Shown: in pieces, positions 10,065-24,140 of the stretch
How the letters are laid out: each line of letters begins with the position of its first letter
Numbering within the stretch: position 1 is the stretch's first letter
Virus record (IMG/VR): IMGVR_UViG_3300030329_000319
Location: 1-24,140 of that record
Source of the DNA: a virus
Length of the DNA stretch: 24,140 nucleotides
Direction: 5' to 3' (one strand)
Made by a program: the position numbers and the translations under genes
Notes under the pieces: model-generated
Seen by the model: the letters and a program-made list of their open reading frames with translations, nothing else
Told to the model about the DNA's origin: nothing
Databases searched by the model: none

Positions 10065-10259
10065 ATGGATTCAGTTGCTTTAGCACAAAAATTATTAAAA
10101 AGCATCCGTGAACAAAAACAGTCTATTTCAGACTATTTAACGGATGGTGGAGCCTCTACAATAGAGGACTATCGTTTTGTTGTAGGTCAGATGCGTGGCT
10201 TGACCTATGCAGAAGAAGAAATTAAAGCCACGATGAAAGGCATCGAAGAAGATGAATAA
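10065..10259 (+). CDS. Small conserved-type phage protein opening the capsid module
   Basis: 64 residues. The pattern LAQKLLKSIREQKQSISDYL, then GGASTIEDYRFVVGQMRGL, then EEEIKATMKG recurs in small proteins of marine and other short-tailed phages, usually near head genes, so the frame is well supported although no role is established. It is predicted to be all-helical and may form a small oligomer. The bases just before the ATG are AT-only with no Shine-Dalgarno, which is unusual in this genome. Its stop overlaps the next gene by 8 nt. It is the first gene after the strong terminator. Confidence 0.8.
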   Translation: MDSVALAQKLLKSIREQKQSISDYLTDGGASTIEDYRFVVGQMRGLTYAEEEIKATMKGIEEDE

Positions 10260-10740
10260 AAAACTATATGTGCCAGATCACATGGTAGGTACTTTAAATA
10301 AACAGAGGGGAAGAACCTCTGAAATTCCAAAAGCTATAAATAAAGCTTTTCCTGAAGCGAAAGAAAATAAAAACTCTAAAGACCCTTCTAAGTTTGAGCC
10401 GTCTGTTATAGACAGATTACCTCAACCAACAGGGTATAGAGTTCTTGTTATTCCCTGGTATCTTCCAGAAAAAACAAAGGGTGGACTTATTGTTCCTGAT
10501 GCAACAAGAGATAGAGAGTCATTCTCTACTGTGTGTGCATATGTAGTAAGACTTGGACCTGATGCGTATAAAGATGTTGATAAATTCCCATCTGGTGCGT
10601 GGTGCAGTGAGAAAAGTTGGATAATTATGGGAAGATATGCTGGAAATCGGTTTAAAGTTGATGGTTTAGAGGTTCGTATCATAAATGATGATAATATTAT
10701 AGGAACAATACTTGACCCATCAGACATTTCTTATGTATAA
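10252..10740 (+). CDS. Phage GroES-like co-chaperonin
   Basis: 162 residues. A 55-residue basic N-terminal extension precedes a Cpn10-type core (about 55-153): RLPQPTGYRVLVIPW, a mobile-loop equivalent ETK-type segment PEKTKGGLIVPDATRD (72-87) with the GroEL-binding GGLIV at 77-81, VVRLGPDAYKD, SWIIMGRYAGNRFKVDG and RIINDDNIIGTI. Together these match GroES from start to finish. It would cap host GroEL in the cytoplasm and help fold phage proteins, most likely the capsid protein made from the same operon, as T4 gp31 does for gp23. The ATG lies inside the previous gene. No phage GroEL is in the window, so host GroEL is the presumed partner. What the extension does is unclear. Confidence 0.92.
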   Translation: MNKKLYVPDHMVGTLNKQRGRTSEIPKAINKAFPEAKENKNSKDPSKFEPSVIDRLPQPTGYRVLVIPWYLPEKTKGGLIVPDATRDRESFSTVCAYVVRLGPDAYKDVDKFPSGAWCSEKSWIIMGRYAGNRFKVDGLEVRIINDDNIIGTILDPSDISYV

Positions 10741-16034: not shown

Positions 16035-16678
16035 GTTTTACATACGCAACTTTAAAAACAGCAATACAAAATTACACAGATAATACAGAAACAACCTTTG
16101 TAGCGACCCTAGATACTTTTATAAAAACTGTTGAAGATCGTATTTTAACATCTGTAGATTTAGAATATTTTAGAAAGAACGCTACTGCTTCTATGACATC
16201 AAGTAATCAGTATCTTGCTGTTCCTTCTGATTTTTTATCTTCTTTTAGTATGTCGATTGTAAATTCAAGTTCTAAAGAGTTTTTATTACAAAAAGATGTA
16301 AACTTTATTCAGGAATTTAATCCAAATTCTTCAACTACAGGCACACCACGTTATTATGCTCGTTTTGATAATAGTAATTTTATTGTAGCACCAACTCCAG
16401 ATGCGAATTATGTGACAGAGGTTCACTACTATTATAGACCTACGAGCTTAACTGCTGGAAGTGATAGTGGTACAACCTGGTTAAGTACAAATGCTCCAAA
16501 TGCTTTATTATATGGATGTTTAATGGAAGCTTATACTTTTATGAAGGGTGAACAAGACGTAATGGCAATGTATGAAAAAAGATTTGCAGAAGCATTGTCT
16601 CGTTTAAAAGATTTTGGCGAAGCAAGAGAAAATGCTGATGCTTTTAGAAGAGGATTACCAGATAGGCCACGAACATGA
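16031..16678 (+). CDS. Phage adaptor protein (SU10-type)
   Basis: 215 residues, ATG overlapping the previous TGA (ATGA). N-terminal helices (TYATLKTAIQNYTDNTETTF, then DTFIKTVEDRILTSVDLEYF) are followed by a beta region with YLAVPSDFLSSFSMSIVNS and GTPRYYARFDNSNFIVAPTP, and a C-terminal helical part (ALLYGCLMEAYTFMKGEQDV, then MYEKRFAEALSRL). That is the layout of the adaptor that links the portal ring to the tail in SU10-like and related short-tailed phages. With the gp4-like gene at 15053 it forms the neck. The strong match of layout makes the assignment fairly secure. Confidence 0.86.
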   Translation: MSFTYATLKTAIQNYTDNTETTFVATLDTFIKTVEDRILTSVDLEYFRKNATASMTSSNQYLAVPSDFLSSFSMSIVNSSSKEFLLQKDVNFIQEFNPNSSTTGTPRYYARFDNSNFIVAPTPDANYVTEVHYYYRPTSLTAGSDSGTTWLSTNAPNALLYGCLMEAYTFMKGEQDVMAMYEKRFAEALSRLKDFGEARENADAFRRGLPDRPRT

Positions 16679-17388
16679 GGGTAGCAATAGTTGGACTAGG
16701 TGGAAGCTATGCAGATTACATAGCGGCTAGAATAAGATCAGAAAAATTTGATGAAGTTTGGGGTATTAATTGTATCGGTGCAATAATTCATGTGGACAAG
16801 ACGTTTATGATGGACCCTGTATCTCGTTTTTTAGATACGGATAATGCAGGATTGCAAACAGGCATAGCCAATGAATTTCTCAAAAATAACAAAAAACCTA
16901 TCTACACTTGCCAACTGGATAAAAGAGTCAAAAATCTCAAACTATATCCACTCGAAGAGGTCATTAAATCTACCAATCTTTGTTATTTTAACAACACTGT
17001 ACCTTATGCTATTGGTTATGCTATATATTGTAATGTCTCTTCCATTTGTCTTTATGGGATAGATTATACATATAAAGACAATATCTATATGGCAGAATCT
17101 GGCAGAGCTTGCACTGAATTTTGGTGTGCTACGGCTGTGTCAAAGGGTATAAAAGTAGAGGTTGCTCATAGGTCTGGTTTGTTAGATACGAATGTACCTG
17201 ATAGTGAGAAATTGTATGGGTATCACAGATTGGAAGACCCTTTAGTTCAACAATTTAACGAACAAGGGCTTTTAATTACAAAACAGTCTGAAATTGCTCC
17301 ACCAGAGCCTATAGACAATAAACCTATACTTTTTGGAAGACATGATATACAAAAACTAAACGGAGTTAATAATCATGTTTCAAATTAA
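16675..17388 (+). CDS. Rossmann-like protein, MptE/DUF115-type candidate (role unknown)
   Basis: 237 residues, ATG overlapping the adaptor stop (ATGA). The N-terminus RVAIVGLGGSYADYI (2-16) is a strand, Gly-rich loop and helix of nucleotide-binding type. Further motifs are FDEVWGINCIGA (25-36), FMMDPVSRFLDTD (44-56), NTVPYAIGYAIYCN (107-120), ICLYGIDYTY (124-133) and ESGRACTEFWCATAVSKGIKVEVA (broken here at 141-164). This resembles the Rossmann fold of DUF115/MptE-like proteins, which includes sugar-transfer-related and pterin pyrophosphokinase enzymes. The last 45 residues look disordered. It lies in the middle of virion genes with no gap, so it is made with the structural proteins. It could modify a virion glycan or be a moonlighting structural subunit; neither is shown. 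No signal peptide. Confidence 0.85.
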   Translation: MRVAIVGLGGSYADYIAARIRSEKFDEVWGINCIGAIIHVDKTFMMDPVSRFLDTDNAGLQTGIANEFLKNNKKPIYTCQLDKRVKNLKLYPLEEVIKSTNLCYFNNTVPYAIGYAIYCNVSSICLYGIDYTYKDNIYMAESGRACTEFWCATAVSKGIKVEVAHRSGLLDTNVPDSEKLYGYHRLEDPLVQQFNEQGLLITKQSEIAPPEPIDNKPILFGRHDIQKLNGVNNHVSN

Positions 17389-19662: not shown

Positions 19663-20028
19663 ATGGCAAATACATTCAAAGTTGTGAGTTTTGCGGCTGA
19701 ACCAAACGCTAGTGGAACTCCGTATGTAATGTACACAGCCGCTAGTAGTACAACAACGATTGTTTTAGGTTTAATACTTAGCAATATACATACTTCACAA
19801 GTCACGGCTACCGTAAGGTTAGTAAGTGATACTGGTAGCAGAGGTGGATCAAATAATGTAACAAATGGTACAAGCATAATTGTTAAAGATGCACCAATAC
19901 CTGTTGGAGCCTCATTAGAATTGATGGCAGGTAATAAAGTGGTATTAGAAACAACCGATCAAATTACAATAGACTGTAGTGTAGCAGATAAACTTTCAGG
20001 TACACTCAGTATTATGGAAATAACCTAA
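19663..20028 (+). CDS. Small beta-rich tail-associated protein
   Basis: 121 residues with TAGGAGAA before the ATG. Starts ANTFKVVSFAAEPNASGTPY and continues with regular strands (TIVLGLILSNIHTSQVTATV) and the segment KDAPIPVGASLELMAGNKVV. This PIPVGASLELxxGNKVVL pattern is common in small proteins beside fibre genes and suggests a compact beta sandwich. Likely a fibre accessory or tip-associated structural protein. Confidence 0.83.
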   Translation: MANTFKVVSFAAEPNASGTPYVMYTAASSTTTIVLGLILSNIHTSQVTATVRLVSDTGSRGGSNNVTNGTSIIVKDAPIPVGASLELMAGNKVVLETTDQITIDCSVADKLSGTLSIMEIT

Positions 20029-20029
20029 C

Positions 20030-20482
20030 ATGGCTTATGTTGGCAATGAACCAAGTGCTAATTTTCAAACACCTCCTGCTGTAGTCCGTTTTAGTGGAGA
20101 TGGTTCCGATACGACTTTTGATTTAGGTAGAACTATAGGATCTGTACAAGAAATACTGGTATCAGTAGATGGTGTTGTACAAGATAGTGCCGCATATACT
20201 GTACCCGATGGTCAGACGCTTACCTTTACTGCGGCTCCGTCTAGTAACTCTGGTAATAATATATTTGTGTATTTTCTTGAACTTGCAGGTGAGTCAATAG
20301 CTCCTGCCGCAGAAAACAAAGGTAACTTTAAGCATGGTGGTATGTTTAGAACTAATGCACAAAGTATGACTATCAGTACAACTATTACAGCTACTGAAAA
20401 TGCAACCGCTACAGGTACATTAGGTATAGCATCAGGTGTGACGTTGACTATCGAAAGTGGTGGGAGGCTAGTGGTGCTATGA
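20030..20482 (+). CDS. Fibre N-domain protein, copy 1 (attachment domain)
   Basis: 150 residues. AYVGNEPSANFQTPPAVVRF, FSGDGSDTTFDLGRTIGSVQ, EILVSVDGVVQDSAAYTV and IFVYFLEL form the beta domain that many marine phages use at the N-terminus of fibres to bind the tail. The C-terminal half MTISTTITATENATATGTLG to GGRLVVL is a short beta-helical end. The stop overlaps the ATG of the first tip protein (20479), so the two are made together in a fixed pair. The same arrangement recurs at 23447/23908. Confidence 0.85.
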   Translation: MAYVGNEPSANFQTPPAVVRFSGDGSDTTFDLGRTIGSVQEILVSVDGVVQDSAAYTVPDGQTLTFTAAPSSNSGNNIFVYFLELAGESIAPAAENKGNFKHGGMFRTNAQSMTISTTITATENATATGTLGIASGVTLTIESGGRLVVL

Positions 20483-20928
20483 GTACGTTAAAAGTAGATG
20501 CAATAAATGCAACTGGTGGTACTACAGGGATGGCTCTTGCTAGTAATGGTATAGTAACTATTCAAGGTGAAGGCACAGCTACAACTAATCTACAACAGGG
20601 TTTAATTAAACAGTGGGTAAATTTAACTGCGGCAACTCCTGCGTATAAAGATACTTTTAATGCGTCTACGGTTACAGATACAGGTGTAGGCAGATATGCG
20701 TACCCTTTTACAAATCCTATGGGTAATGCAAACTATAGTGCTGTAGGGTGTGCTTCAACTAAAGGTAGTTCTAATTCTTACTCATTTATAGTAACAACAG
20801 GAGATTCAGCTAATACTTATGGGTTGCATAGCACCGCTTCTATTGCTTTTCATACATACGCATACAATGCTACTACTTTGGCAGACCCAGATACAACAAA
20901 TAGCATAGTATCAGGAGACTTAGCATGA
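20479..20928 (+). CDS. Fibre tip-like protein, paralogue A
   Basis: 149 residues. Shares with the next genes the core TTNLQQGLIKQWVNL, DTFNASTVTDTGVGRYAYPF and NPMGNANYSAV, plus the end SGDLA. The core xxDSFNxxxxTDxGxGxxxxxxTN is a recognised feature of fibre tips in marine phages. Predicted beta-rich with many Asn, Ser, Thr and Tyr, suited to surface binding. It overlaps its partner at 20030 and paralogue B by 4 nt each. Confidence 0.84.
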   Translation: MSTLKVDAINATGGTTGMALASNGIVTIQGEGTATTNLQQGLIKQWVNLTAATPAYKDTFNASTVTDTGVGRYAYPFTNPMGNANYSAVGCASTKGSSNSYSFIVTTGDSANTYGLHSTASIAFHTYAYNATTLADPDTTNSIVSGDLA

Positions 20929-21347
20929 GTACACTCTTACTAAACACACTAACAGGCAAAACCTCCGCAGGGTCTATCGTGGTGACAGGAGAAGGTGGTT
21001 CTACAACTACGAATATGCAACAGGGTCTATGTAAAGGTTGGGCATTAACAGACTTTGCGGCCGCACAAAATGATGATAGCTTTAATGTATCTGCTTACAC
21101 AGACTATGCGGCAGGGTATGGACAGTTAAGTTGGAATAACGATTTCAATAATGCAAATTATGCTGTTGCCCAAGCCTGTTCAGGTTCAGGCACTAACCCT
21201 AATTGTGTCCCAGGATCTAATGCCAACTCATCAAAGGGAGCAGGAACTATAAGAATAAATACTATGGATAGTTCTAATGCTACTCCATCAAGTGATATGA
21301 TTGATTATGCAGAGTTTGGCACAGTAGCTATGGGAGATTTAGCATAA
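20925..21347 (+). CDS. Fibre tip-like protein, paralogue B
   Basis: 140 residues. The core is STTTNMQQGLCKGWAL, DDSFNVSAYTDYAAGYGQLS and NDFNNANYAVAQ, with the end AMGDLA. Compared with paralogue A the N-terminal 40 residues and the core are related while the part after the NY motif (CSGSGTNPNCVPGSNANSS) is different, including two cysteines not shared with the others. That is the pattern expected of a conserved core with a variable receptor-facing end. Confidence 0.84.
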   Translation: MSTLLLNTLTGKTSAGSIVVTGEGGSTTTNMQQGLCKGWALTDFAAAQNDDSFNVSAYTDYAAGYGQLSWNNDFNNANYAVAQACSGSGTNPNCVPGSNANSSKGAGTIRINTMDSSNATPSSDMIDYAEFGTVAMGDLA

Positions 21348-21763
21348 TGGTAGCACACGGAACAATAGCATTTGACACGCTCACAACGTCTGACCAAGTA
21401 AAGACTGGCACTGAGAAGTCACTAGATACTAGTTATCTTTATAATGGTTCAATTAAAGCATACGGACATCATTCAGGGGATAGTCCTACAACAGCAAGTA
21501 TGAATGATAGTTTTAATATTGCTACTTTAACCGATAACGGCACAGGAGATATTACTTATACTTGGACTAATGCTTTTAATAATGAATATTACAGTGCTAG
21601 TGGTATGTCTACCGAAGATGGTACAATAGGTTATGTCTCTTTATATTATAGCAGGTCTTATACTAGGTCAGCGGCTAATTTACGATTACAAGGTATAGAT
21701 AATGGAGACAGCTTTGATGATGGAGTATTTACTTCTTTTATGTGTGTAGGAGCATTAGCATGA
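21347..21763 (+). CDS. Fibre tip-like protein, paralogue C
   Basis: 138 residues. The N-terminal 40 (VAHGTIAFDTLTTSDQVKTG) are unlike those of A and B, but the core is shared: GSIKAYGHH, NDSFNIATLTDNGTGDITYT and TNAFNNEYYSASG, and the end CVGALA corresponds to GDLA. The exchange of the N-terminal part while the core stays suggests domain recombination among fibre genes. Overlaps: one base with paralogue B, 4 nt (ATGA) with the next gene. Confidence 0.83.
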   Translation: MVAHGTIAFDTLTTSDQVKTGTEKSLDTSYLYNGSIKAYGHHSGDSPTTASMNDSFNIATLTDNGTGDITYTWTNAFNNEYYSASGMSTEDGTIGYVSLYYSRSYTRSAANLRLQGIDNGDSFDDGVFTSFMCVGALA

Positions 21764-22248
21764 TAGAAACACCAGAATTTCAAGGCACACATTTATGGGA
21801 GCGTCTATGTTGGGCAAAGGAAAAGCTAGAGCCTTACAGGAGCGAGTACTGCATAGTATGGGAAGACCCTAATGAAATGGAAAACCCTGCTAAAGTTACA
21901 CACCCAGACCCTAACTGGATGGCTTGTGCATTACAGGGTGGCATACTACCACCAGTACAATCCTATTGGGAACTGAAGAAAGATGAAGCAAAGCCTGACT
22001 TTGTGAAACATACCAGAGGTCCAGAGCTTCTACACAACATGAAACCTATTGACGCTATGACTGAAGAAGAGGCAATAGAGTATTTAATAATGAAGGACAT
22101 ACCCGAACACGTTTGGAGAGATTGGGATAAATCCAATAAACCACGCTTAGTAATTTGCCAAAAGTCACAACTCCCTGCAACTAGGGAATGGAGAAACGCT
22201 TGGCAAATAAGTGATGAACTCACTGTAGATAAAACCGAAGCCGCATAA
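21760..22248 (+). CDS. Conserved-type acidic protein in the fibre locus, possible fibre assembly factor
   Basis: 162 residues from the ATG at 21760 overlapping the previous TGA; a longer reading from upstream would start within the fibre gene without a ribosome site. Rich in Trp, Glu and Pro, unlike its Ser/Thr-rich neighbours: TPEFQGTHLWERLCWAKEKL, YCIVWEDPNE, HPDPNWMACALQGG, LPATREWRNAWQI. It is mixed alpha/beta and soluble. The presence of such genes between fibre genes points to a chaperone or assembly role, but no family is recognised, so this is inference. Confidence 0.8.
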   Translation: MIETPEFQGTHLWERLCWAKEKLEPYRSEYCIVWEDPNEMENPAKVTHPDPNWMACALQGGILPPVQSYWELKKDEAKPDFVKHTRGPELLHNMKPIDAMTEEEAIEYLIMKDIPEHVWRDWDKSNKPRLVICQKSQLPATREWRNAWQISDELTVDKTEAA

Positions 22249-22260
22249 AGGAGTATTATT

Positions 22261-22635
22261 ATGGCAACTAAATCTTATATAACTGACATGGATGGTAAGA
22301 CTGTTGATGCATCTGCTGTAAGCAAACCATCTGATAGACACTTCAGGGGTGCTTGGAAACTTAGTGGTTCCACTATCTCTGAGGATATGACCAAAGCAAA
22401 AGAGATATTTAAGGACAAGATTAGAGAAGTCAGAAAGCCGTTGTTAGAAGCTGAAGATGTAGTGTACATGAAAGCACTAGAAGCTGATGATGCTTCTGCT
22501 AAGACTGCGAGTGTTAATAAGAAGAAAGCTCTTAGAGATGCACCTGCGGCACAAGCAATAACAGATGCAGACACTATAGCTAAACTAAAGGCAGCTTGGG
22601 ATACAAGCACATTGGGTACTAGCCCCTACGCATAA
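22261..22635 (+). CDS. Helical fibre-locus protein, possible tail fibre assembly protein
   Basis: 124 residues; AAAGGAG at 22247-22253 precedes the ATG. After a short start (YITDMDGKTVDASAV) comes DRHFRGAWKLSGSTISEDMT, then a helical region AKEIFKDKIREVRKPLLEAE, DVVYMKALEADD and KKALRDAPAAQAITDADTIA. This AW-xx-x-Ix-xDMxKAK-xxxDxxRxxRxPLLExxDxxxMxALE pattern recurs in small proteins beside phage fibres and resembles fibre assembly proteins. Charged and helical, so a chaperone is more likely than a virion component. Confidence 0.82.
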   Translation: MATKSYITDMDGKTVDASAVSKPSDRHFRGAWKLSGSTISEDMTKAKEIFKDKIREVRKPLLEAEDVVYMKALEADDASAKTASVNKKKALRDAPAAQAITDADTIAKLKAAWDTSTLGTSPYA

Positions 22636-22645
22636 GGATAATTGA

Positions 22646-23173
22646 ATGGCACTGACACAGGTTATAGGACGAGGACTAGGTACTCAAACAACTCTAGCAG
22701 GTAGTAATACTTTAGTATTAGATACTGATGGTAATATTACCAAGCCATTACAACCTGCTTTTCGTGTTCATAAAAATGGTACAAAGCAAACTAACATTGC
22801 TTTAAATTCTCATGTAGACATAACTTTTTCAACTGAAGTATTTGACGTAGGTAGTAATTTTGCATCTAACACATTTACAGCACCTGTAACAGGAAAGTAT
22901 GTATTTATTTTAAAGTTACGATTAGATGCTGTAGACAGTGCCGCTAGTTTTTATATTCCACGAATAACTACAAGTAATTCAAGTTACTTAGACATTTTTG
23001 ACCCAGATGTAGGTCAAGATAATGATTATTGGGGTATAACTCATATAGTTTTAGCAGATATGGATGCAAACGACACTGCTTCTGCAACTTTGTATCAAAG
23101 TGGTGGAACTTCACAAACTGATATTGAAGGAGATGGAACATATACTTATTTTTCAGGGCATTTAGTATGTTAA
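22646..23173 (+). CDS. C1q/TNF-like jelly-roll protein, probable receptor-binding
   Basis: 175 residues. A short N-terminal part (1-36, ALTQVIGRGLGTQTTLAGSN) is followed by a jelly-roll of C1q type (about 37-175): PAFRVHKNGTKQ, ITFSTEVFDVGSNF, FTAPVTGKYVFILKLRLDAV and the end YFSGHLVC. The FTAPVTGKYVF and final SGHLV segments are typical of C1q domains in phage fibres and tips. Trimeric C1q heads bind proteins or sugars, so receptor recognition is likely. AAGGAT precedes the ATG at proper distance. Confidence 0.86.
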   Translation: MALTQVIGRGLGTQTTLAGSNTLVLDTDGNITKPLQPAFRVHKNGTKQTNIALNSHVDITFSTEVFDVGSNFASNTFTAPVTGKYVFILKLRLDAVDSAASFYIPRITTSNSSYLDIFDPDVGQDNDYWGITHIVLADMDANDTASATLYQSGGTSQTDIEGDGTYTYFSGHLVC

Positions 23174-23183
23174 GGAGAAAAAA

Positions 23184-23447
23184 ATGGCAAAATTAACATT
23201 AACGGTTGAGTTAACCGACACACAACAAACTATATTAAAAAACGATTTGCTAGACCTAGATGCGTGGTTACAATCCGCTATGACAGGAAAAGTAAATAAC
23301 TGTTGGAAAAGGATGCAGTCAGAGTGGACAACAAAGCTGATGAATGACGAGAGTTTCACAGACCCAATCCCAAGCAACCAAGCAGACTTTGTAACATTAG
23401 TTACTGCAAGGAGTGATTATAAGAACAGAGCAAATAGAGAGAAGTAA
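23184..23447 (+). CDS. Small helical conserved-type protein of the fibre locus
   Basis: 87 residues with AAGGAG at 23173-23178. AKLTLTVELTDTQQTILKND, LLDLDAWLQSAMTGKVNNCW, KRMQSEWTTKLMND, then IPSNQADFVTLVTARSDYKN and RANREK. The pattern LxDxQxxILKNDLLDxxxWxQxAxxGKxNNCxKR with a final RSDYKNR recurs beside marine phage fibres, as far as I can recall, and is unassigned. It overlaps the next gene by one base. Probably cytoplasmic and involved in assembly. Confidence 0.83.
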   Translation: MAKLTLTVELTDTQQTILKNDLLDLDAWLQSAMTGKVNNCWKRMQSEWTTKLMNDESFTDPIPSNQADFVTLVTARSDYKNRANREK

Positions 23448-23911
23448 TGCCATATATAGGTAAATCACCAAAGAACTCAGTCCGTAGCCGTTTTACATAT
23501 CAAGCGACAGCAGGGCAAACATCTTTTAGTGGCAGTGATGCTAACGCTTTGACACTGAGTTATTCAGATAGTTTATATATGGATGTTTATCAAAACGGAG
23601 TGTTACTTAAAAGTGGTACAGATTATACCGCTACGACAGGTACAACAGTAGTTCTAGTTAGTTCAGCATCAGCGAATGACATAGTAGAGATGGTAGTCTA
23701 TGATGTGTTTGCTGTGGCTGATAGCTACTCTAAGTCTGACTCAGATACACGCTATCCATTCTTAGGCAACAACTCTATCATTAGAACTAATGGCAACTCT
23801 ATCAGTGCAGACATTACAATAAGCAGTAGCACAAATGGATTATCAGCAGGACCAATTACAGTAGGCTCAACTAGCACTGTGACTGTCGCAGGATATTGGA
23901 CAATAGTATGA
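23447..23911 (+). CDS. Fibre N-domain protein, copy 2
   Basis: 154 residues, ATG overlapping the previous TAA. PYIGKSPKNSVRSRFTYQAT, AGQTSFSGSDANALTLSYSD, LYMDVYQNGVLLKSGTDYTA and IVEMVVYDVFAVADSYSKSD have the same plan as copy 1 at 20030 but differ in sequence. SKSDSDTRYPF is a linker typical for fibres, and the end ITVGSTSTVTVAGYWTIV is a short beta-helix. The stop overlaps the ATG of the partial tip gene at 23908, as in copy 1. Confidence 0.86.
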   Translation: MPYIGKSPKNSVRSRFTYQATAGQTSFSGSDANALTLSYSDSLYMDVYQNGVLLKSGTDYTATTGTTVVLVSSASANDIVEMVVYDVFAVADSYSKSDSDTRYPFLGNNSIIRTNGNSISADITISSSTNGLSAGPITVGSTSTVTVAGYWTIV

Positions 23912-24140
23912 CAAGTAAACTTGTATTAGACAATATAGCAGGAAGAACTACGGCAGGTAGTATAACTATTGTTGGAGAAGGCAATAGCACCACAACTAAT
24001 CTACAGCAGGGGTTAGCTAAAGCGTGGGCAGGTGGTGACGATGATGGCACTACTATTAGGGATAGTTTTAACGTAACAAGTAGGACAGACGAAGGCACAG
24101 GAAACTATGACTACACTGTAACAAACGCTTTTTCTGCTCA
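23908..24140 (+). CDS. Fibre tip-like protein, paralogue D (3' end beyond the window)
   Basis: At least 77 residues; open at the window end. TSKLVLDNIAGRTTAGSITI, VGEGNSTTTNLQQGLAKAWA, RDSFNVTSRTDEGTGNYDYT and VTNAFSAQ match paralogues A and B through the N-terminus and core. The start is closest to paralogue B (LTGKTSAGSIVVTGEGGSTT). The C-terminal variable part is outside the window. Confidence 0.85.
   Translation, partial: MTSKLVLDNIAGRTTAGSITIVGEGNSTTTNLQQGLAKAWAGGDDDGTTIRDSFNVTSRTDEGTGNYDYTVTNAFSA

What the first reader, a model, noticed from the sequence alone, without database searches (positions are those of the whole stretch)
20030..24140. Duplicated two-gene fibre cassette (attachment-domain gene plus tip-like gene)
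The pair 20030/20479 and the pair 23447/23908 have the same order, similar lengths, the same 4-nt overlap and related products. Between them lie two further tip paralogues, a C1q-like protein and three possible assembly genes. This looks like a modular receptor-binding locus that grew by duplication and may let the phage carry several alternative tips at once.
Basis: partly seen in the sequence, partly recalled or inferred. Interest (0 to 1): 0.6.

Follow-up and report, generated by a model that had tools for sequence, protein, structure and literature searches.

The report
Address-tagged swappable phage adhesin tips
A marine phage carries a row of small adhesin genes in which every position keeps its own short address tag while the sticky tip behind the tag is freely exchanged between positions and between phages, which would let the virus mix and match what it can attach to.

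Summary
The window (a 24,140-base virus record related to SAR116 phage HMO-2011) ends inside a conserved locus: anchor A1, three tips, two chaperone-like genes, one middle tip, anchor A2, three tips, a final slot. A1 and A2 are one-to-one orthologues across related marine phages, so the duplication is old. Blocks from A1 to the first chaperone-like gene hold exactly three tips in 65 of 65 loci and 44 of 44 held-out loci; in distant relatives the number varies (mostly 3 or 4). Each tip has a ~33-residue N-terminal tag specific to its position (nearest neighbour in the same slot 419 of 444; held-out prediction 154 of 158), also present on unrelated C1q-like tips (104 of 115), and a ~94-residue tip with little slot memory that moves between slots with sharp DNA breakpoints. 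Two of the window's own tips occur elsewhere behind other tags. The conserved GDLA end hides the next gene's ribosome site. A1 has the T7 gp17 attachment fold; tips resemble lectin-like fibre tips. Best reading: an addressed rack of exchangeable adhesins, working like, but not belonging to, Ackermannviridae tailspike complexes. Docking and simultaneous display are inferred.

The parts
19663..20028 (+). Small conserved gene directly before A1 ('Z'), probable virion protein
   Evidence: phrog_1276 E 2.3e-9; found before A1 in most relatives
20030..20482 (+). Anchor A1: T7 gp17-like N-terminal attachment domain plus C-terminal hub
   Evidence: Fold of T7/HRP29/T5-type attachment domains, Z 8-9 over residues ~13-86; PF03906 E 1.5e-4 but 21.9 bits under the 25.2 cut-off; next gene overlaps by 4 bases in 93 of 93 relatives
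20321..20479 (+). Hub: C-terminal part of A1
   Evidence: Same segment ends a 422-aa fibre in Mel-JY33/Nsp-JY18, stands alone as a 56-aa protein in distant phages, matches the last 46 residues of a 3319-aa tail-fibre family
20479..20607 (+). Address tag of slot p1
   Evidence: Slot-specific N-part; boundary at the invariant Lys44
20608..20928 (+). Exchangeable tip of slot p1
   Evidence: Same tip in slot q3 of L013, q1 of L084, p3 of L082; DNA breakpoints at joint and stop; lectin-like fold
20914..20917 (+). GGAG of the ribosome site for slot p2, inside the GDLA codons of the p1 tip
   Evidence: Gly codon GGA in 387 of 394 GDLA ends versus 1528 of 5315 elsewhere
20925..21032 (+). Address tag of slot p2
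21033..21347 (+). Exchangeable tip of slot p2
   Evidence: Same tip behind a p1 tag in L015 (C similarity 0.94, N 0.28)
21333..21336 (+). GGAG of the ribosome site for slot p3
   Evidence: sequence
21347..21454 (+). Address tag of slot p3
21455..21763 (+). Tip of slot p3
21749..21752 (+). GGAG before the start of chA
   Evidence: sequence
21760..22248 (+). chA, conserved gene after the first three tips; putative tip-assembly factor
   Evidence: Follows tip-bearing genes in close and distant relatives; no Pfam or PHROG match
22261..22635 (+). chB, putative tip-assembly chaperone
   Evidence: phrog_20196 E 8.9e-32 (unknown function), phrog_4912 tail fiber assembly E 5.6e-4
22646..23173 (+). Middle slot: MALT... 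tag plus C1q-like tip
   Evidence: C1q E 6.6e-4 below cut-off; 78 of 81 non-B middle tips score best with the middle tag
23184..23447 (+). chC, partner (probable chaperone) of C1q-type tips
   Evidence: Directly follows a C1q-bearing gene in 16 of 16 occurrences, 3 of them A2::C1q fusions
23447..23911 (+). Anchor A2, paralogue of A1
   Evidence: residues 7-107 48.5% identical to the tail-fibre N-terminus of HTVC031P; fused to a C1q tip in L008, L011, L079
23759..23908 (+). Hub: C-terminal part of A2
23908..24018 (+). Address tag of slot q1
24019..24140 (+). Tip of slot q1, cut by the end of the record
   Evidence: 97% identical over 77 columns to q1 of L013, which continues with q2, q3 and a 347-aa final slot

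Best explanation
The locus encodes an addressed rack of small adhesins on the phage tail. Two anchors (A1, A2), each with a T7 gp17-type attachment domain and a C-terminal hub, hold several different tips. Each tip carries a short N-terminal tag that fixes its position (p1, p2, p3, middle, q1, q2, q3, final), and a C-terminal binding domain that is interchangeable. Recombination at the conserved tag-tip joint and at the gene end replaces the binding domain while the tag stays, so a phage can take over a tip from any slot of any relative without breaking assembly. The conserved gene end also supplies the ribosome site of the next gene, so translation of the row stays coupled after a swap. Non-B tips often travel with their own small chaperone gene. 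Shown by sequence: conserved order, slot-specific tags, slot-free tips, breakpoints, embedded ribosome sites, the anchor fold (by prediction). Inferred: that tags dock tips on the hubs, that tips are homotrimers that bind sugars, and that they are displayed together.
For: Conserved order over 151 loci; 65 of 65 and held-out 44 of 44 complete A1..chA blocks with three tips (51 and 34 of these are three B genes; the rest count unassigned ORFs >=140 aa as tips, a cut-off set after seeing the first set). N-part nearest neighbour in the same slot 419 of 444 against 0.15 for shuffled labels, C-part 122 of 444; mean C similarity 0.155 same slot, 0.151 different slot; 85 of 146 similar tip pairs (>=0.5) sit in different slots, 80 of them with different tag labels, and 57 of 85 multi-locus tip clusters span more than one tag. 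Held-out tag prediction 154 of 158, chance 0.22. Unrelated tips keep the slot tag, 104 of 115. Breakpoints: about 50% to >=90% DNA identity at the joint in 13 of 13 pairs chosen from the upper part of the list, and back at the gene end in 12 of 13. GDLA Gly codon GGA 387 of 394 versus 1528 of 5315 elsewhere, held-out 148 of 152. Folds. B tip fused to the end of 226-379-aa fibres before chA in five distant contigs. Replicate in two cyanobacterial phage records: tags 76-81%, tips 34-39% identical. Tags are under purifying selection at the protein level: median pS 0.52-0.62, pN 0.26-0.43.
Against: No multimer could be modelled and no binding data exist. The tag is low-confidence in the single-chain model (pLDDT ~50). 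Non-B tips in p2 (8 of 13) and q2 (0 of 3) do not all carry the expected tag. In distant relatives the tip number is not fixed: 24 BBB, 4 BBBB, 10 u+BBB, 3 u+BB, 1 u+BBBB, 4 BB (one, L246, mis-called by my ORF filter), 1 B of 47. Tip fold matches are middling (Z 5-6.7). All but a few of the loci are metagenome contigs and the sets were the best 80 hits per query.
Confidence: 0.66

Rival explanations
1. Mosaicism without address: the 5' ends stay simply because recombination happens at a conserved linker inside the gene, and the tags have no docking role beyond a generic one.
For: The linker (GEG..TTNLQQGL.K) is conserved in most slots and breakpoints fall there; one linker-borne mechanism explains swapping.
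Against: Tags differ between slots (different-slot N similarity 0.168, same-slot 0.541) but stay within a slot across loci with near-saturated synonymous change (pS 0.52-0.62); they sit on unrelated C1q-like tips (104 of 115); tags p3 and q3 mostly lack the common linker.
Confidence: 0.17
2. Heterotrimer: the three tips of a block assemble 1:1:1 into one hetero-trimeric tip on each anchor.
For: Exactly three tips in 109 of 109 complete blocks of this phage group; in three loci A2 plus three tips is replaced by one A2::C1q fusion.
Against: Distant relatives have 1 to 5 tips; slot p1 or p2 can be a C1q-like fold beside two B tips; tips of one block are no more alike than tips of different phages (0.152/0.153 versus 0.151), so no sign of matched interfaces; the solved folds that match best are, from general knowledge, homotrimers.
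Confidence: 0.1
3. Alternative tips: all tips compete for one site per anchor and each fibre carries one at random.
For: Tips share one ancestry and are interchangeable between slots.
Against: Position-specific tags would be unnecessary; they are conserved in every slot and predictive (154 of 158).
Confidence: 0.1
4. Artefact: swaps are chimeric metagenome assemblies.
For: Nearly all loci are metagenome contigs.
Against: Swapped tips differ by several percent in DNA, so they are not misjoined copies of one read set; cultured HMO-2011 tips recur in other slots (p1 as mid of L158, C 0.71; mid as q3 of L057, C 0.61); the same tag-stays, tip-differs pattern separates two cyanobacterial phage genomes.
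Confidence: 0.03

Closest known systems
Branched tailspike (TSP1-TSP4) cluster of Ackermannviridae (Kuttervirus, CBA120)
   Same: Several receptor-binding proteins in one cluster; N-termini conserved per position, C-terminal modules diverse; modules found in different TSP positions, joined at a conserved motif (PMC8432352, abstract and passages). A1's attachment domain also matches the TSP4 N-terminal region of CBA120, Z 8.5.
   Different: Here up to eight short (~140-aa) proteins instead of up to four tailspikes, two separate anchor genes, fixed three-tip blocks in this phage group, lectin- and C1q-like tips, podovirus-type relatives.
Tail-fibre locus of Puniceispirillum phage HMO-2011 (gp43-gp28)
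   Same: Same gene order with A1, A2, chA, tips and C1q; the window is a relative.
   Different: Only annotated as tail fiber, tail-related, collar, C1q or hypothetical proteins; its p2 and q2 slots hold non-B tips with an extra small gene.
T7-like pelagiphage tail fibres (e.g. HTVC031P) and T7 gp17
   Same: Shared N-terminal attachment domain (48.5% identity over residues 7-107 of A2; fold Z 8-9 for A1).
   Different: There one long fibre (T7: recalled); here the anchor is about 150 aa and tips are separate genes.
Variable host-recognition islands of marine phages (metaviromic islands)
   Same: Tail-fibre and C1q genes as the variable part (PMC3909814, passages).
   Different: The passages read describe variable genes and C-termini, not position tags or exchange between positions.

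Membership tests
T7 tail fibre N-terminal domain (PF03906) | Score above Pfam's curated cut-off | tested here: not met
   A1 21.9 bits against 25.2; A2 no hit. Not filed as a member
T7 tail fibre N-terminal domain (PF03906) | Fold of the gp17 attachment domain | tested here: met
   7ey9 Z 8.9, 7boz Z 8.6, 8dsp Z 8.5, about 70 residues aligned; Foldseek E only 1.5e-3 and weaker
T7 tail fibre N-terminal domain (PF03906) | Sits at the tail and carries the fibre | not testable with these tools
   no virion data
C1q domain (PF00386), middle tip of the window | Score above Pfam's curated cut-off | tested here: not met
   20.3 bits against 23.7; other tips in the same locus type pass: L136 55.1, L009 40.1 bits. 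Called C1q-like only
Gp53-like tail fibre tip (PF21882) / H-type lectin-like tips | Sequence profile match | tested here: not met
   Only B3, E 0.15, 13 bits against 24.9
Gp53-like tail fibre tip (PF21882) / H-type lectin-like tips | Shared fold | tested here: inconclusive
   Best rows include Pam1 and phiAB6 tailspike ends, SLL-2, R-pyocin tips, Helix pomatia agglutinin, AP22 gp53, Z 5.0-6.7; under the Z 8 that would stand out
Ackermannviridae branched TSP complex | Clustered receptor-binding genes with position-conserved N-termini and diverse C-termini | tested here: met
Ackermannviridae branched TSP complex | Binding modules found at more than one position, joined at a conserved motif | tested here: met
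Ackermannviridae branched TSP complex | Belongs to an Ackermannviridae genome with large tailspikes | tested here: not met
   Tips ~140 aa; large terminase nearest to Pelagibacter phages HTVC027P/HTVC023P among named isolates. Works like it, not a member
Ackermannviridae branched TSP complex | gp10-like XD domains that hold the spikes together | tested here: inconclusive
   A1 attachment domain matches CBA120 TSP4 residues ~181-252, Z 8.5, but T7-type domains match equally
Phage tail assembly chaperone (PF16778), small genes after non-B tips in relatives | Score above Pfam's curated cut-off | tested here: met
   L014 44.4 and L075 60.8 bits against 26.6; a third (L077) is XkdW; 2 of 5 tested have no hit. 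The window's own chC has none
Diversity-generating retroelement target | Reverse transcriptase and template repeat nearby | not tested
   not searched for

The most novel reading that the evidence does not exclude
The virion displays all of the tips at once at fixed addresses: a natural plug-and-play adhesin array of about eight positions on two anchors, in which a population-wide pool of binding domains is shared across positions because only the short tag has to fit. A phage could then change or widen host recognition one slot at a time by a single recombination event, and the tag alone would let one predict from sequence where any tip sits.
Probability: 0.4. Interest if true: 0.75.

Novelty: new variant of a known kind. 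Interest (0 to 1): 0.6.

Why it matters
[quoted passage not shown] If the tags are addresses, tip position can be read from sequence, the pool of exchangeable binding domains can be catalogued from metagenomes, and exchange of host recognition becomes traceable one slot at a time. It also gives a second case of position-addressed, swappable receptor-binding modules next to Ackermannviridae, with much smaller parts that should be easy to express and test.

Tried and rejected
Recent pair duplication: rejected, A1 and A2 orthologous across relatives and almost no within-locus tip similarity. Fixed number three as a law of the whole family: rejected after the distant set. Prophage or bacterial origin of chA: a scan of genome contigs gave 9 pattern hits and no relative. 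Solved-structure sequence searches: one chance-level hit for tips, E 0.33; for the anchors the 60 rows shown are antibody chains, which I take as a chance resemblance of a Gly/Ser-rich stretch. Match to the whole window among phage records: none at megablast level. The iterated C1q profile drifted into the A family and was replaced by a domain-only profile; the iterated chB profile drifted (200 hits) and was replaced by single-pass phmmer. My first slot script mistook chA for A by substring and was redone. The iterative alignment of all B rows timed out and was rerun with a faster setting. Literature: searches in an open-access library listed no paper that, from listing, abstract or passages read, describes position tags in HMO-2011-type phages; HMO-2011 with C1q gave 0 papers. 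The original HMO-2011 genome paper was not in the listings and was not read. That the matching tip folds (H-type lectins, R-pyocin, gp53) are homotrimers is recalled, not tested.
Full report
What was claimed and what is there. The genes exist at the stated coordinates with the stated 4-base overlaps. A1 (20030) and A2 (23447) are distant paralogues; the tips B1 (20479), B2 (20925), B3 (21347) and B4 (23908, cut at the end) are paralogues of each other. The record is a 24,140-base virus fragment and cannot be extended. No phage record matches it at megablast level. Its large terminase is nearest to Pelagibacter phages HTVC027P and HTVC023P and two other aquatic phages, but the anchors and chA match cultured HMO-2011 best: A1 60.7%, A2 68.8%, chA 67.1% identical.

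Locus architecture. Searches with A1 and A2 gave 80 loci each, the best of 480 and at least 545 relatives. After removing 9 contained loci, 151 remained including the window and HMO-2011. The order is: long fibre, small gene Z, A1, three tips, chA, chB, one middle tip (sometimes with chC or another small gene), A2, three tips, a final slot usually of 330-390 aa. A1 and A2 profiles at E 1e-30 recover 99 proteins each with none shared. Of 65 loci with the whole A1 to chA block, 65 have three tips: 51 are three B genes, the rest contain a C1q-like or unassigned tip. I counted unassigned ORFs of 140 aa or more as tips and shorter ones as accessory, a cut-off chosen after seeing this set. In a held-out set from the HMO-2011 A1 query (68 loci kept of 79), 44 of 44 complete blocks have three tips, 34 of them three B genes. 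After A2, 31 of 99 loci read B B B then the large final slot and 30 are visibly cut; the others are shorter, hold non-B tips, or have a fourth B. Three loci carry A2 fused to a C1q-like domain and then no B genes. In 93 of 93 cases A1 overlaps the next gene by 4 bases.

Tags and tips. B proteins split at an invariant lysine into an N-part (median 33 aa) and a C-part (median 94 aa). Among 444 distinct B proteins in eight slots, the nearest neighbour from another locus is in the same slot for 419 by N-part and 122 by C-part; shuffled labels give 0.15 for both. Mean N similarity is 0.541 within and 0.168 between slots; mean C similarity is 0.155 and 0.151. Of 3296 pairs with nearly the same N-part, the median C similarity is 0.16. 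Of 146 between-locus pairs with C similarity at least 0.5, 85 are in different slots; 9 of those 85 have similar N-parts, which includes slot shifts by inserted genes, and 80 have different tag labels. 57 of 85 tip clusters found in two or more loci span more than one tag. The tip of the window's slot p1 also sits in q3 of L013, q1 of L084 and p3 of L082; the tip of its slot p2 sits behind a p1 tag in L015. Tag profiles trained on the first sets name the slot of 154 of 158 held-out B genes. The same profiles, trained on B genes only, pick the right slot for 104 of 115 non-B tips: middle 78 of 81, p1 11 of 11, q1 5 of 5, q3 2 of 2, p2 8 of 13, q2 0 of 3. The final slot looks the same by eye: the large proteins and most fourth B genes share an MSKA..LA or MTKA..LA start.

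How exchange works. For 13 swapped pairs that I picked from the upper part of the list, DNA identity rises from about 50% to 90% or more at the tag-tip joint in all 13 and falls back at the gene end in 12; in the thirteenth the flanking genes are shared too. B genes nearly always end in GDLA. The glycine codon there is GGA in 387 of 394, but only 1528 of 5315 glycine codons elsewhere in the same genes, and GGAG lies a few bases before the start of the next gene, which mostly overlaps by 4 or 1 bases; held-out 148 of 152. So at least part of the conservation of this peptide is a ribosome site. Tag regions have median pS 0.52-0.62 and pN 0.26-0.43 per slot, so the protein is constrained although silent sites are near saturation.

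Folds. The single-chain model of B1 has a mostly confident C-part and an unordered tag (pLDDT mostly 83-92, with a loop at 64-68, versus about 50). Best structural matches of the tip are phage fibre or spike ends and H-type lectins, Z 5.0-6.7; predicted phage proteins match with E down to 8e-9. A1 matches T7, HRP29, T5, CBA120 TSP4 and related attachment domains with Z about 8-9, although the overall model is modest (pTM 0.45). A2 residues 7-107 match the tail-fibre N-termini of many pelagiphages and roseophages.

Origin and partners. In cyanobacterial phages Mel-JY33 and Nsp-JY18 a 422-aa fibre ends with the A1 hub and is followed by three B tips, chA and chB, with no second block seen in the annotated stretch. 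Between these two phages the fibre is 96%, chA 87%, chB 99%, the three tags 76-81% but the tips 34-39% identical: the same rule again. Among 66 distant loci found with chA, 47 have an A1-type gene upstream: 24 BBB, 4 BBBB, 10 u+BBB mostly with a 56-aa hub-only gene, 3 u+BB, 1 u+BBBB, 4 BB (L246 is really three, lost by my ORF filter) and 1 B; five others have a B tip fused to the end of a 226-379-aa fibre directly before chA. This makes B a fibre tip and chA/chB its likely assembly partners, and it shows that three is not universal. chC follows a C1q-bearing gene in 16 of 16 cases. Two of five small genes after non-B tips are PF16778 tail assembly chaperones and one is XkdW.

Comparison with what is known. 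In Ackermannviridae, up to four tailspikes form a branched complex; N-termini are kept per position, binding modules are diverse and some occur in different positions, with a conserved motif at the joint (PMC8432352, abstract and passages); exchange was engineered (PMC11414711, abstract). The present locus works in the same way on sequence evidence but differs in parts, number, anchors and virus group. Variable tail-fibre and C1q genes in marine phages are known (PMC3909814, passages). Papers on HMO-2011-type phages that I looked into mention tail-fibre genes only in general terms (PMC6918029 and PMC8528129, passages).

Verdict.

Noticed in passing
window 10252-10740: GroES-like co-chaperonin gene among head genes (phrog_3188, E 1.6e-9); the related Pelagibacter phages HTVC027P and HTVC023P have one near the capsid gene too.
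   Followed up: no
window 16675-17388: 237-aa protein between tail genes with no PHROG match at E 0.1.
   Followed up: no
L148 whole (2731 bases): A2 anchor followed by two tips and then chA; the second tip has a p3 tag, as if the A1 block had been rebuilt on A2. Could be a recombinant or an assembly error.
   Followed up: partly
L122 2500-4700: Five B genes after A2; the extra gene has a p2-like tag and the tip that sits behind the q1 tag in L120.
   Followed up: partly
L117: chA and chB are one 237-aa ORF.
   Followed up: no
L120 3127-3528 and 6549-6968: The only within-locus pair of similar tips (C similarity 0.84), in slots p3 and q4.
   Followed up: no
L076 135-3248: 1037-aa protein with an A2-like N-terminus on a long fibre upstream of A1.
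   Followed up: no
L290, L303, L306, L308, L316-L319, L323, L324: 56-aa proteins that look like the hub alone, followed by a 165-199-aa unassigned tip and three or more B tips.
   Followed up: partly
window 20030-20482: Profile search of the anchors against solved structures returns antibody light chains because of a Gly/Ser-rich stretch; taken as chance.
   Followed up: no
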